Shown: positions 12,545-39,058 of the stretch, in pieces
Layout: each line of letters opens with the position of its first letter
Numbering within the stretch: the first letter of the stretch is position 1
Source: Sporobolomyces roseus
Lineage: Eukaryota > Basidiomycota > Microbotryomycetes > Sporidiobolales > Sporidiobolaceae
Direction of reading: 5' to 3'
Length of the DNA: 64,000 nucleotides
Assembly (NCBI GenBank): GCA_016617785.1
Contig: JADILM010000010.1
Coordinates: 620,001-684,000 of the forward strand
The notes under the pieces: model-generated
What the model was told of the DNA's origin: nothing
The model's database searches: none
Seen by the model: only the letters and a program-made list of their open reading frames with translations
Program-made: the position numbers and the translations under genes

Positions 12545-12769
12545 TTTTCAGCTGGAGACTGGGAGCTGGGAAAAGATGCAGGAGAAGCGGAAACTCCAAG
12601 ATCTAAAGCTCTTGCGAAAGACGAGGTCAAGGGCAAAAGTCTGATGAGAGAGCGTCGAGCTCAGGTCGAGTGTACGAACCCAAAAGTGGAGACCAGACTT
12701 TGTCACTGTCAACGCTTTGTGTACAACCTCGAAAAAAGGGTAAAAGATGATTGGCAGGAGATGTGAGCC

Positions 12770-12776
12770 AAAAAAA
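12770..12776 (-). terminator. Pol III oligo-T terminator of left tRNA-Ala
   Basis: Seven consecutive T on the tRNA strand, beginning 8 nt after the discriminator base. This fits the usual RNA polymerase III stop signal. Confidence 0.75.
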
Positions 12777-12783
12777 GAGAATC

Positions 12784-12907
12784 TGGAGAAGATGGGAATT
12801 GAACCCACTGCCTCTCGCACTCGACTGTGCTTTAAATCTGTAGCTTGTTAAGGCCGGTGAGAGTGAACAAGTGCTAAGCGAGCGCTCTACCGATGAGCTA
12901 CATCCCC
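12784..12907 (-). tRNA. tRNA-Ala(AGC) with 52-nt intron
   Basis: On the minus strand the gene starts GGGGATGTAGCTCA and ends GGTTCAATTCCCATCTTCTCC plus discriminator A. The anticodon arm reads CTCGC-TTAGCAT-GCGAG once the intron after position 37 (one base 3' of the AGC anticodon) is removed. The acceptor stem contains the G3-U70 wobble pair, the main alanine identity element, and one T-T mismatch at the sixth pair. The mature length is 72 nt. A TATA-like element lies about 45 bp upstream (plus strand near 12950) and a run of seven T on the tRNA strand (12770-12776) is the likely Pol III terminator. A second copy lies at 24216-24338. Confidence 0.92.
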
Positions 12908-24215: not shown

Positions 24216-24338
24216 GGGGATGTAGCTCATCGGTAGAGCGCTCGCTTAGCACTTGTTCACTCTCACCGGCCTTAACAAGCTACAGATTTAAACACAGTCG
24301 AATGCGAGAGGCAGTGGGTTCAATTCCCATCTTCTCCA
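24216..24338 (+). tRNA. tRNA-Ala(AGC) with 51-nt intron
   Basis: Same gene as at 12784-12907, on the opposite strand. It has identical acceptor, D, anticodon and T arms, the G3-U70 alanine identity pair, and an intron after position 37 that is one base shorter. A TATATA element lies upstream near 24165-24175 and six T at 24346-24351 form the probable Pol III terminator. Confidence 0.92.
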
Positions 24339-24345
24339 GATTCTC

Positions 24346-24351
24346 TTTTTT
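24346..24351 (+). terminator. Pol III oligo-T terminator of right tRNA-Ala
   Basis: Six consecutive T eight bases after the discriminator base, in the same relative position as in the left copy. Confidence 0.75.
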
Positions 24352-24877
24352 GCTTCCGTCTCCTGTCAACCATCTTCTTCGAGGTTGTTCGCAAAGCGTT
24401 GACAGAGACGGGCTACACTTTTGAGGTTCACTTCCAGAGAGTACAACTGCGACGGTATCTCATCAGACTTTTGCCCTTGACCTCCGAATTTACTTCGCAA
24501 AGAGCTTTGGATCTTGGAGTTTCCGCTCCTTCTGCACTTCTTTTCTCTTGCCATCGACTGACATCAGAGGCACTGCTGCCGTATCGTTCAGTCAAGCGGC
24601 GCGCGCTGTTGAATGGAAGAAGTCGCTTTCGCTTTTTCCTGCTCGGGTACAGACGTCAATCCTCTAAGCTCAGTCTATACTCTGTTCTTACGCGCCCTGC
24701 TTATAGTAGCCTGTCGCTAAGCTCTGACCGCAAGCCAGAGAGAGATATTCGAAAAGCGAGGTGCGTGCGATGGAATCAGATCGAACCTTTTCTGCTCTTC
24801 CTTCTCCTCCGGCCACGTCTTGCCTCTCGCTCAACTCGCCTCGACAAGCCGTCAAAGCACAGAACCAATATCTGAAC

Positions 24878-35742: not shown

Positions 35743-35994
35743 TTGTTTCGTTATTTTCGATAGGTGAGTTTGGATCTTCTCTCGCTAAAAACGATTCCAA
35801 ACTGACCCTCCCTTCTCTGCGCAGACTTGCTTCTTCATACATATACTCTTTGGAAGCTCCTTATCCTGCATTGTAATCATTCGTTGTAGTCGTCTTGAAA
35901 ACTCTGAGACCTCCGAAAAGCTCCTCGGATTAAAGGTCATTGCTGTTTTTTTGGCGTTTCTTCTCTCTCTCTCCTTTGCTCTTCACTGCTCGAG

Positions 35995-36786
35995 ATGGCG
36001 AATTCACTCTACGCTGCTTTATCTACTTCTGACGACTCTTCGCCAATCAGTCGTACCCGTCAAGGTGTCCTCAATCGCTGGAACTCTCTAGCCGAATCGA
36101 CCGGCAGCTGGACCAACCCCTTCTTGTCCAGATTTCATTCACTATCCACTGGAATTGGGAGCTTGACTCGCTCTTCTACAGCCGCGACGAGTGCAGTGAG
36201 CTAACTCGGATTCTCAGCTCTAGGTGCGAGAGCTGATGGTTTCTTCTTTCAGGTTCCTGCTTCATCGATTCCAGCATCCGAACTAGTCCACAACTCCTTC
36301 AAGGAGTATGAAGCGACGACAAGAGGCAAAGTGGAAGGGGAGGAGGAAACCGTTGGACTCGTAGCGTCAGCACCAGCTCCCTCAAAAGATCCTTTCGACG
36401 ATTCGAAAGCAGTCAAAGCTGCCAAACCAAAGCCACTTTGGCATCGAGGAATCACGGCGGCGGCGATATTGGCTGGGTTGATCGCGTTGGGTCTCGGGTT
36501 GGGATTGGGGATCAAGAAAATCACGAACAAGGTCGAGGAAAGTGAGGCGGCGAGAATGTCGAGTTCACTCGCAATGGCTTCAACAACTCCCTCGACGAGC
36601 CAGCTATCTTCTTCTTCTTCGCTATCATCCACATCTGTTCCGTCTTCGCAAACGTCTCCCTCGTCCTCCTCCGAGACTCCCTCGCAGTCCTCATCCGTTC
36701 TTCCTCCCTCGACCACTCCATCACCGACGACCACTCCAATCGGTAACGACATCTTCTGGGCAGTAGCAAAGACGGCGTCAACATAG
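35995..36786 (+). CDS. Single-pass membrane protein with Ser/Thr-rich tail (244 aa)
   Basis: Exons 35995-36195 and 36253-36786, joined in phase 0. A hydrophilic N-terminal half of about 130 residues is followed by one hydrophobic segment at about residues 133-154 (ITAAAILAGLIALGLGLGLG) and a Ser/Thr/Pro-rich tail ending IFWAVAKTAST. The architecture is the same as that of the gene directly upstream, 250 bp away on the same strand. Sequence similarity outside the general composition is weak. Function unknown. Confidence 0.68.
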
Positions 36787-37715
36787 TGAAATAAGGGTCT
36801 GTTTATATTTCTTTGTGTGTACTACTTTGGAGATATCGATTCTATCGAAGAAATGTCTACGAAACTCGGAATAAGAACGATACAATGTGGGAAAAGGAGG
36901 AAAGTGCAGGGGATAGAGAAGAACGACGAGGGGAGAAGGTATGCGAGGAGAAAGGGAGGGTTGCGAAGGACGACTGACTGGAGGTGTTAAGGGAGTATAG
37001 GGCGTAAAGAAGAACTGCGACTGATTTGTGGAACAGCTTTTTGGGAACAAAACATATTTGAGAAAAGTGGTGACAGAAGAAGAAACGAGAGAGGTACTGC
37101 TAGAGTGGGAGGAGAGGAAAGAGAGAGGGAGAGAGAGATTGCTTTTTTTTGTGTTGAAAGTTGAGGTTGACGACTTCGAAGTTCCTAGGGGATCCACCTT
37201 ACCCTTCGTCCCACCCTTTTGACCATTCTCCACGACTTCTAAACCTGTATCTGACAACTCAAGTGACTTACCTCCCCGGATTACAAAGCTCATCAAAACC
37301 GAAAGAAACCGACGACTCGCTTCGATTCTCCTCGGAGAAGCGCTTCTTCAGCTAGAAACCATCACTCTACTCCCTTCTTTCGACACGCCAACTGGGGCTA
37401 GCTCGATACACCTACAAGAGGTGGAGCACAGCACGGGCAGATAATCGAAAGGAGAGGGAAGTAGGAGTGAGGTAGCGAAGAAAGCACTGTGCACGAGGAG
37501 ACGAGCGAGTCGGGAGAGAGGTTTCAATCGGGAGAGACAGTGTGAGGGAGGAAGTGTTGAGATGAAAGGGTAGGAAGAGGAGGGAGTGGAAAATGAGGGT
37601 TGTACAAAGGTTGTTGATGTCGAGGACTAGAGGAGAAAGAGCAATCAGTTTCCGAAAGACATAGACAGAAAGATCGCATGTAGACTCACTTGGTTTCAAA
37701 GCCGTCGTCCGCGAT
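36787..37715. other. Convergent intergenic region
   Basis: About 930 bp between the stop codons of two convergent genes. Purine-rich tracts on the plus strand (about 37070-37140 and 37440-37600) are notable, but no gene is visible. Confidence 0.4.
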
Positions 37716-39058
37716 TCAACACGATGAAGCGGTCACTGGACCATCATTGAGGAACGAGAAATCGACAAATGCGAGTCCCGAAGTGACGGCCGATTCGTCG
37801 TCGTCCTTCGCACAGACCTCTTCAGTCTTGACCCATTCATTCCACATGGGAGGAGGAGCGAGGTGATCGAAGTCCTCGAGGTAAGATTCGGTCGCAGGAG
37901 GAGTCGAGGCGAGGTCGAGGGAAGCGACGGAACCAGGAGTTGACGAGATCGACGCAGACAAGGAGGGGGAGCGAGTGAGAGAGGAAGAAGAAGTGGAGGA
38001 TGAGATCGAAGTCGAGAGTGGAACAGCTTCCGCGGCAGGGAAAAATCAACCTCGCGTGCTACGAGGCGAGAGCTGTCCAGATTCATCGACGACGACGACA
38101 AAGCCAATTTCTGATCTTCAGAGGAGAGGAGAGGAGTCTGCGTGACGTTGGTGGTTTCGGTTGTTGCTTGTCGAGTACCGTAACGTTTTTGACGATTACG
38201 TTCTTCGACGAAAGCGAGTTCTTCGGGTTGAGGGAGAGGTTTGATGTCGGTAGTGTCGAAGGCGAAGGTAGGTTCGAAGGAAGGGAAGGGAGGAGTAGAA
38301 GTACCCGAGTTCGATGAGAGGTGGGCAAACTTGTCCTCGAGAGAATCGAGACGAGTTCGAAGTCGGGCGGATTCAACTTGTTCGAGGTGAAGTTGAGTTC
38401 TCAACAGATCGTTCTCGTCTTCGAGGTCTGCCATTCTCGCGTCCGATGACGAAGAGTTTGAGGTGATAGATGTCGATCTTTGTGACCGAGGTGGTTTTGA
38501 ATTTGACAAAGTCGAGGCGGTGAAGTTGGACGAAGAAGAAGTTGAAGCGGAGAGAGGATGGGGACCAGTCGATCTCAACTGGGATTCGAGTTCAGCTACT
38601 CGTCGTTCCAAGTATGCAGTGTGTTCCTTCTTGCGATCTCGTGAGGCTTGAGCGGCATCTGTTGAAGGGAAATCGAGACGGTGAATAAATTTCACTTGGA
38701 GCAATGTGAGGTGATAAAGGGATTACTCACTTCGATTCCTGATCATCCTAGCTTGTCTACGTGATTCCTTCTCCTTCTCACTCAATGCCTTGACTCCTCC
38801 TCCTCCTCCATGTTGAGGAGAGGTTGTTCCTCCCCCCGCAGCGGATTCCCCTTCGAAAGATGAGAGTGCAGGGGATCCCGCTCTTGGGTTGTAACCTGCA
38901 CGACTACGCTTTGATCGAGGTTTGTTGTACTCGTCGTCTTCTTGATCAGAGAGATCGAACGCAGCTACCGAAGCTGCGTTGGATAATCGGCGTTTCGGTC
39001 GTTGATCGGTTGAGGAAGAAAGGGAGGGGAGAGAAGGGAGAGCGAACGAGGTTGACAT
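37716..39058 (-). CDS. HAC1: HAC1/XBP1-type bZIP factor with non-canonical intron
   Basis: Exons 39058-38731 and 38658-38059 are joined by an ordinary 72-nt GT-AG intron that splits the basic region. The bZIP reads RRQARMIRNRNAAQASRDRK then KEHTAYLERRVAELE, and the NAAQ-SRDRKK core is that of the HAC1/XBP1 class. A second 23-nt segment (38058-38036), not GT-AG, must be removed to reach the last exon 38035-37716. It has IRE1-type hairpins at both ends. The spliced protein has 415 residues and ends in an acidic, aromatic tail (SYLEDFDHLAPPPMWNEWVK, FVDFSFLNDGP) suited to activation. The unspliced frame gives 417 residues and ends at 37733 in a basic, Leu/Pro-rich tail. This factor would drive the ER unfolded protein response. 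Confidence 0.88.
38036..38058 (-). promoter_or_regulatory. Putative IRE1-spliced 23-nt intron of HAC1
   Basis: On the minus strand the 5' hairpin is CCTCG-TAGCACG-CGAGG (38066-38050), five perfect pairs around a 7-nt loop. The 3' hairpin is TTCC-CTGCCGC-GGAA (38042-38028), four perfect pairs plus a T-G, again with a 7-nt loop. Cutting after the third loop base (G) in both removes 23 nt and shifts the frame exactly from that of the bZIP to that of the acidic tail. The 3' loop fully matches the C-N-G-C-N-G-N consensus. The 5' loop keeps the G and C around the cut but differs at positions 1 and 6. Confidence 0.83.

What the first reader, a model, noticed from the sequence alone, without database searches (positions are those of the whole stretch)
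38028..38066. Overlapping-frame HAC1 gene with a 23-nt IRE1-type intron framed by two 7-nt-loop hairpins
Seen directly: the bZIP frame (exon 38658-38059) runs on in a basic tail to 37733, while a different frame to 37716 encodes an acidic tail rich in Trp/Phe. No GT-AG intron joins them. Two perfect short hairpins, CCTCG-TAGCACG-CGAGG and TTCC-CTGCCGC-GGAA, lie 23 nt apart when cut after the G at loop position 3, and this cut gives the exact frame change. The codon made at the join is GCC (Ala). Known: IRE1 cuts HAC1/XBP1 mRNAs at such loops (C-N-G|C-N-G-N). Inference: this is the master UPR regulator. At 23 nt its intron would be near the short ascomycete introns and unlike the longer ones I recall from Cryptococcus and Ustilago. 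Automatic annotation would miss it. The 5' loop deviates at positions 1 and 6, which may be lineage-specific.
Basis: partly seen in the sequence, partly recalled or inferred. Interest (0 to 1): 0.88.

Follow-up and report, generated by a model that had tools for sequence, protein, structure and literature searches.

The report
Stress-spliced HAC1 gene in red yeast
A red-yeast gene hides a 23-letter intron, apparently cut out by the ER-stress enzyme IRE1 rather than the normal splicing machinery, that swaps the end of the master ER-stress regulator; relatives share it, and its first cut site breaks the rule known from baker's yeast.

Summary
A second gene copy 113 kb away keeps both hairpins; its differences are mostly silent in the acidic frame (dN/dS 0.17), not in the basic frame (4.4). 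All named homologues are Pucciniomycotina: red yeasts and kin, then rusts. Frame-0 readings imply 23 nt in 20 of the 23 (of 65) relatives that match the motif. The best evidence is a protein pair (P0075/P0077), identical up to RLVA: one continues unspliced, the other as a 23-nt excision predicts, with 107 residues consistent with one DNA read in two frames. The genome encodes IRE1 kinase and RNase domains and a tRNA-ligase domain. The 3' loop fits the yeast Ire1 consensus; the 5' loop (UAG|CACG) breaks it at positions 1 and 6 and at the closing pair, yet is deduced to be conserved in several genera. I read it as a HAC1/HXL1-type UPR gene with a lineage-specific 5' site. No RNA from this species was available.

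The parts
38731..39058 (-). Exon 1, ATG to CGAA|GTGAGT; 328 nt
   Evidence: same splice site kept in copy 2
38659..38730 (-). Ordinary spliceosomal intron, 72 nt, GTGAGT..CAACAG, inside the bZIP basic region (by sequence; no RNA)
   Evidence: 73 nt in copy 2
38579..38773 (-). bZIP domain (aa 96-136), interrupted by intron 1
   Evidence: Pfam bZIP_1 33.1 bits, bZIP_2 26 bits
38059..38658 (-). Exon 2 up to the 5' non-conventional cut
   Evidence: dN/dS 0.027 against copy 2 upstream of the junction, first 18 codons left out
38071..38079 (-). TGGACAGCT, predicted to pair with 38028-38019 and bring the two hairpins together (prediction only)
   Evidence: RNAfold MFE
38050..38066 (-). 5' splice-site hairpin CCTCG-UAG|CACG-CGAGG, proposed cut between 38059 and 38058
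   Evidence: pair probabilities 0.83-0.95
38036..38058 (-). 23-nt IRE1-type intron CACGCGAGGTTGATTTTTCCCTG
   Evidence: identical in copy 2
38046..38048 (-). TGA that closes the acidic frame, lying inside the intron
38028..38042 (-). 3' splice-site hairpin UUCC-CUG|CCGC-GGAA, proposed cut between 38036 and 38035, fits CNGNNGN
   Evidence: pair probabilities 0.25-0.67
37716..38035 (-). Exon 3: acidic, Trp/Phe-containing tail of the spliced protein
   Evidence: dN/dS 0.17 against copy 2; similar tails in relatives
37733..38058 (-). Alternative basic tail read from unspliced mRNA
   Evidence: dN/dS 4.4 from 11 differences; frame open in both copies and in P0013
37627..37689 (-). Probable 63-nt intron in the 3' UTR (GTGAGT..CTAG), kept in copy 2
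   Evidence: read by eye

Best explanation
This is the HAC1/HXL1-type master regulator gene of the unfolded protein response in a Sporobolomyces-like red yeast. The mRNA first loses a normal 72-nt intron. It is then exported still carrying a 23-nt second intron, and in this state encodes the bZIP with a basic tail under no detectable purifying selection. On ER stress IRE1 cuts both 7-nt loops after position 3 (UAG|CACG and CUG|CCGC), the 23-nt piece falls out, and a fungal tRNA ligase joins the exons. The frame changes by -1 at a new GCC codon, the in-intron TGA is lost, and the bZIP gains a conserved acidic tail, presumably an activation domain. Shown: the anatomy, selection on the acidic frame, conservation in relatives' proteins, IRE1 and ligase domains in the genome, and a relative's sequence in spliced and unspliced form. 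Inferred: that this pair comes from RNA, export before splicing, dependence on stress and IRE1, ligation, and the tail's function. The join can shift by one base without changing the product, because the first base after each cut is C.
For: Exact anatomy and frame. Paralogue substitutions after the junction: acidic frame 8 silent and 4 replacement in 105 codons (8 and 3 in the 100 that overlap the basic frame), basic frame 1 and 10 in 100; Fisher P 0.003 for a silent excess in the acidic frame. Similar acidic tails in annotated red-yeast relatives. P0075 and P0077 are identical through RLVA and then fit two frames of one DNA for 107 residues, at an offset that I count as 23 nt; in 200 shuffles of the P0077 tail no run reached the script's 12-residue floor. 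R. toruloides P0014 against P0040: 99 residues, also 23 nt by my count from the offset. A pattern around RLVARE..[LMQ][QPL]RK matches 23 of 65 relatives, 20 with 23-nt spacing. Deduced DNA: GTAGCACG[CA]GAG in Rhodosporidiobolus; and, if frame 0 reads as in the others, the 5' hairpin in P0001, P0022, P0045 and P0047. With local codon use the nine-codon match has chance about 2e-6 for one lineage. IRE1 RNase pieces at 82.5 and 59.9 bits and a kinase domain 5' of them; tRNA-ligase kinase domain.
Against: There is no RNA from this species. The 5' loop breaks C1 and G6, and the stem's first 3' base is C, not G; these features are essential for efficient cleavage by yeast Ire1 (PMC549064, passages). 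The MFE draws an extra U-G pair inside the 5' loop and does not draw the 3' hairpin with its 7-nt loop. No DNA of relatives could be read, only proteins. P0075/P0077 come from a source coded 'lgn' that no call explains. Many annotated relatives join the tail elsewhere, presumably by modelled GT-AG introns (for example P0001-P0003, P0006, P0008, P0015, P0017, P0038). 42 of 65 relatives do not match the frame-0 pattern, and P0067, P0068 and P0071 of the later 14 lack RLVA; many of these are differently modelled or cut short, but I did not check each. The basic frame stays open in both copies and in P0013, so its product may have a use. The 106-nt identical block around the hairpins is barely longer than the next (102). 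Rfam has no match; I recall no Rfam family for this intron.
Confidence: 0.93

Rival explanations
1. The acidic tail is joined by an ordinary spliceosomal GT-AG intron further upstream, as several public protein models imply.
For: Relatives' models join the tail at other points (for example P0001-P0003, P0006, P0008, P0015, P0017, P0038). Four frame-correct GT-AG pairs exist here.
Against: All four share acceptor GGAAG|CTG at the edge of the 3' hairpin, have weak-looking donors (GTAATC, GTCAAA, GTTACG, GTACTC, against GTGAGT for intron 1) and would delete the RLVA segment that the frame-0 relatives encode. The models differ in where they join. P0077 shows the 23-nt join.
Confidence: 0.04
2. A -1 ribosomal frameshift reaches the acidic frame from unspliced mRNA.
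For: The frame change equals -1 and a T5 run lies at 38045-38041, just after the TGA.
Against: TTTTTCC is not a standard X-XXY-YYZ slip heptamer (sequence; rule recalled). P0075 and P0077 differ by 23 nt in the nucleic acid itself.
Confidence: 0.01
3. The 23 nt is a micro-intron removed by the spliceosome with GC-AG ends, as the R. toruloides model P0014 implies.
For: P0014 equals a 23-nt removal shifted 3 nt in the 3' direction, which would give GC..AG ends there (and reasoning; no DNA seen).
Against: In this window the shifted ends would be GC..CG, not AG. 23 nt is much shorter than intron 1 (72 nt). The hairpins and the 3' loop consensus are left unexplained.
Confidence: 0.02

Closest known systems
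Cryptococcus neoformans HXL1
   Same: Basidiomycete bZIP, ordinary intron upstream and non-conventional intron downstream of the bZIP, tail swap, IRE1 dependence shown there (PMC3154848, passages)
   Different: 56-nt intron with CAG at both borders there; 23 nt here with UAG|C at the 5' border. No Cryptococcus protein was among the homologues listed
Ascomycete HAC1/hacA with short introns (A. fumigatus 20 nt, C. albicans 19 nt; lengths from PMC3154848)
   Same: Short non-conventional intron with tail swap
   Different: Basidiomycete subphylum Pucciniomycotina; 5' loop off consensus
Saccharomyces cerevisiae HAC1
   Same: Two 7-nt loops cut after position 3 (PMC549064, passages)
   Different: 252-nt intron; both loops have C1, G3, G6 and a G opening the 3' leg, which the 5' site here lacks
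Ustilago maydis cib1
   Same: Basidiomycete HAC1-like UPR regulator (PMC4836707, title, abstract start and one passage)
   Different: 65-nt intron (recalled, not from a call)

Membership tests
HAC1/XBP1/HXL1 UPR regulators | bZIP DNA-binding domain | tested here: met
   Pfam bZIP_1 33.1 bits, cut-off 27.6
HAC1/XBP1/HXL1 UPR regulators | Overlapping frames: removal of a short non-GT-AG segment swaps the C-terminal tail | tested here: met
   (by sequence; removal itself seen only in a relative's protein pair)
HAC1/XBP1/HXL1 UPR regulators | Splicing induced by ER stress and dependent on IRE1 | not testable with these tools
   no RNA data
HAC1/XBP1/HXL1 UPR regulators | Orthology by phylogeny with HXL1/HAC1 | not tested
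   Named homologues are Pucciniomycotina only (lineages of five species looked up)
Canonical Ire1 cleavage site | Two stems with 7-nt loops, G at position 3 | tested here: met
Canonical Ire1 cleavage site | CNGNNGN and G opening the 3' leg, at the 3' site | tested here: met
   CUGCCGC then G (rule from PMC549064 and PMC3149027, passages)
Canonical Ire1 cleavage site | CNGNNGN and G opening the 3' leg, at the 5' site | tested here: not met
   UAGCACG then C; the 5' site is therefore filed as a variant, not as canonical
IRE1-ligase machinery | IRE1 kinase plus RNase domain in the genome | tested here: met
   KYRKYDGG..RNKKHHYQDLP read by eye across a short intron
IRE1-ligase machinery | Fungal tRNA ligase | tested here: met
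   PF08303 in two pieces at C2:35621-35944 and 35982-36140, 52.4 and 26.3 bits, one TAA in the weaker piece; the other ligase domains were not sought
Yeast HAC1 | 3' UTR bipartite element | not tested
   -

The most novel reading that the evidence does not exclude
Pucciniomycotina Ire1 has a different, asymmetric site code: a fixed non-consensus 5' loop (UAG|CACG) paired with a canonical 3' loop, kept across red yeasts and perhaps rusts, so that Ire1 specificity and its substrate changed together in this subphylum.
Probability: 0.55. Interest if true: 0.72.

Novelty: new variant of a known kind. Interest (0 to 1): 0.62.

Why it matters
It supplies a candidate missing UPR regulator for red yeasts used in biotechnology: one R. 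toruloides study lists HAC1 as not found (PMC9853887 Table 2, section 16 read). It explains why public protein models of this gene disagree. A natural 5' site that breaks the yeast Ire1 consensus, with a matching IRE1 gene to hand, makes the evolution of Ire1 specificity directly testable. Two near-identical copies in one genome with different promoters add a dosage question.

Tried and rejected
Rfam search of 37600-38700: no match up to E 1. Protein search restricted to 51 residues around the junction: 2 hits among 32 candidates. I first guessed a Tremellomycete and dropped that when the named hits were Pucciniomycotina. I considered the identical block around the hairpins as evidence; it is only slightly longer than the next. 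The Hooks and Griffiths-Jones paper on this intron's structure is not held. Nine literature searches listed no paper whose title or abstract start describes this intron in Pucciniomycotina; searches had other main aims, and each showed at most the top 20 of what matched. Passages of PMC12278674, PMC11134681, PMC4891664 and PMC6116095 and one section of PMC9853887 were read and have none.

Full report
What is there. On the minus strand a bZIP gene starts at ATG 39058, has a normal-looking 72-nt intron (38730-38659) and continues in exon 2 from 38658 (Pfam bZIP_1). Unspliced, the protein is 417 aa with a basic tail; spliced, 415 aa with an acidic tail ending ...MWNEWVK...LAFVDFSFLNDGPVTASSC. The acidic frame is closed on its 5' side by a TGA at 38048-38046, within the 23 nt.

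Chance. In the 64-kb window one pair of hairpins meets a loose 5' rule (5 bp, 7-nt loop, G3) and the strict 3' rule (4 bp, CNGNNGN) at 15-70 nt; simulated sequence gives 0.025 per 64 kb. Single hairpins of either kind are fewer than simulated (14 and 13 loose, 2 and 2 strict, against 21.5 and 5.1), so only the pairing is unusual. The 5' stem pairs form with probability 0.83-0.95 and the 3' ones with 0.25-0.67 in the local fold. The MFE also pairs exon sequence 38079-38071 with 38028-38019, adds a U-G pair inside the 5' loop, and draws the 3' hairpin with an extra inner pair and a bulge instead of the 7-nt loop.

A second copy. The genome (22.4 Mb, 15 contigs) holds a second copy on the same contig, C10 about 543.7-545.8 kb, 92% identical over 2.1 kb, with a different promoter and dissimilar first 18-19 residues. 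A protein search of the genome found these two loci and one weaker match, 37% identical, on C3. After the junction the two copies differ at 12 sites in the acidic frame (105 codons), 8 silent and 4 replacement (dN/dS 0.17), plus one 3-nt insertion. Restricted to the 100 codons that overlap the basic frame it is 8 and 3. The same DNA read in the basic frame gives 1 silent and 10 replacement (4.4). Upstream, without the first 18 codons, the value is 0.027. Fisher P is 0.003 for a silent excess in the acidic frame. So the acidic frame is the one selection maintains. The basic frame nevertheless stays open in both copies and in the near-identical database protein P0013.

Relatives. Search with the spliced protein gave 64 proteins from 7986 scored candidates; the named ones are Sporobolomyces (up to 59% identity), Rhodotorula, Rhodosporidiobolus, Leucosporidium, Phenoliferia, Pseudohyphozyma, Microbotryum, two strains given only as Microbotryomycetes sp., and one Puccinia. 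A profile search gave 24, of which 14 were new and included Puccinia, Melampsora and Phakopsora. Five species looked up are all Pucciniomycotina; the rest are placed from recall. Annotators join the tail in different ways. Frame 0 runs through the intron in 23 of 65 relatives that match a pattern around RLVARE..RK, with implied intron 23 nt in 20, 26 nt in 2 and 17 nt in 1; several come from one species, so they are not 23 independent cases. The acidic frame runs through it as (S/A/V)TRG...AAE(A/T) in 11 of 65. Of the 14 further proteins, 11 show RLVA. Counted by hand, the 10 unspliced ones imply 17 to 32 nt. P0067, P0068 and P0071 do not show it.

Spliced and unspliced forms. P0075 and P0077 are identical from their first residue to RLVA; then P0075 reads REEDLSQQRIGRNWSRA and P0077 reads ADRSELESRG. 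A codon-by-codon test shows that 107 consecutive residues of the two tails can be one DNA in two frames, at an offset that I count as 23 missing nt; shuffled tails gave no run of 12 in 200. R. toruloides P0014 against P0040 also gives 23 nt (99 residues). There the model's join lies three bases downstream, which I read as an aligner preferring GC-AG ends; that is inference. The source code 'lgn' is explained by no call, so that P0077 is a transcript is inferred.

The 5' loop. Yeast Ire1 needs C1, G3, G6 and a G opening the 3' leg (PMC549064, passages; CNGNNGN in PMC3149027, passages). The 3' site fits. The 5' site, UAG|CACG followed by C, does not. It is nevertheless conserved by deduction. 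A pair of Rhodosporidiobolus poonsookiae proteins read in two frames fixes GTA GCA CG[AC] GAG. Acidic-frame readings of Sporobolomyces koalae, R. kratochvilovae and Phenoliferia (GQLSPRSTRG), and of Leucosporidium (LSPRSTRG), give the hairpin sequence if frame 0 encodes (L D) S S R L V A R E V as elsewhere. That condition is an assumption, because frame 0 of those genes was not seen. GTA is 6 of 63 Val codons in two local genes, and with those codon frequencies, used as a stand-in for the other species, the nine-codon match has chance about 2e-6 per lineage. The S. pararoseus pair gives TTT TCC CTG CCG CGG AAG at the 3' site (the two proteins are from different strains, and only the part from there on is consistent), Rhodosporidiobolus CTG CAG CGG, and the rust-like pair CAG CAG CGG. 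The loops of rusts at the 5' site could not be deduced.

Machinery. The IRE1 RNase domain lies at C9:573047-573488 in two exons (82.5 and 59.9 bits), downstream of a kinase domain. A tRNA-ligase kinase domain is at C2:35621-36140 in two pieces.

Rivals. Four formal GT-AG introns of 30-200 nt exist, all with weak-looking donors and all using one AG at the edge of the 3' hairpin. Ribosomal frameshifting and a 23-nt spliceosomal intron are less likely, for the reasons given under rivals.

Known or new. Short IRE1 introns and HAC1-like regulators are known. In basidiomycetes I found in print HXL1, 56 nt (PMC3154848, passages), and cib1 (PMC4836707, one passage). Nine searches listed no account of this intron in Pucciniomycotina in the titles and abstract starts shown, and one R. 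toruloides paper lists HAC1 as not found (PMC9853887, section 16). The library lacks most subscription papers. I therefore rate it a new variant of a known kind: it works like HAC1/XBP1, but its 5' site fails the canonical rule.

Noticed in passing
G000:C10:543.7-545.8 kb (L001) against window 36901-39017: Second gene copy, 92% DNA identity, with abruptly different promoter and first 18-19 codons. In a 35-row tree, within-genome pairs are sisters in 7 of 10 genomes, not in the two S. pararoseus strains, and unsure in S. carnicolor: gene conversion or repeated duplication.
   Followed up: partly
window 37689-37627 (-): A probable 63-nt GTGAGT..CTAG intron in the 3' UTR, 26 and 43 nt after the two alternative stops, kept in copy 2.
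   Followed up: no
window 12623-12864 (-) and 24259-24484 (+): A 226-bp dispersed repeat with 7 matches in the genome, the query itself included, 6 of them on C10; the query lies beside the second gene copy.
   Followed up: partly
window 43037-39867 (-): Neighbouring 1056-aa ORF with IPT/TIG-like and ankyrin-like stretches and a hydrophobic C-terminus; looks like SPT23/MGA2 (by eye, recalled).
   Followed up: no
P0065: A near-identical database protein shifts into the third frame at REVDF|PCRG, as if one T of the T5 run in the intron were missing: sequencing error or variant.
   Followed up: no
P0070/P0073, P0079, P0066, P0069: Rust relatives imply introns of 17, 20, 29 and 32 nt by hand count (others 23), so length varies there although it is nearly fixed at 23 nt in red yeasts.
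   Followed up: partly
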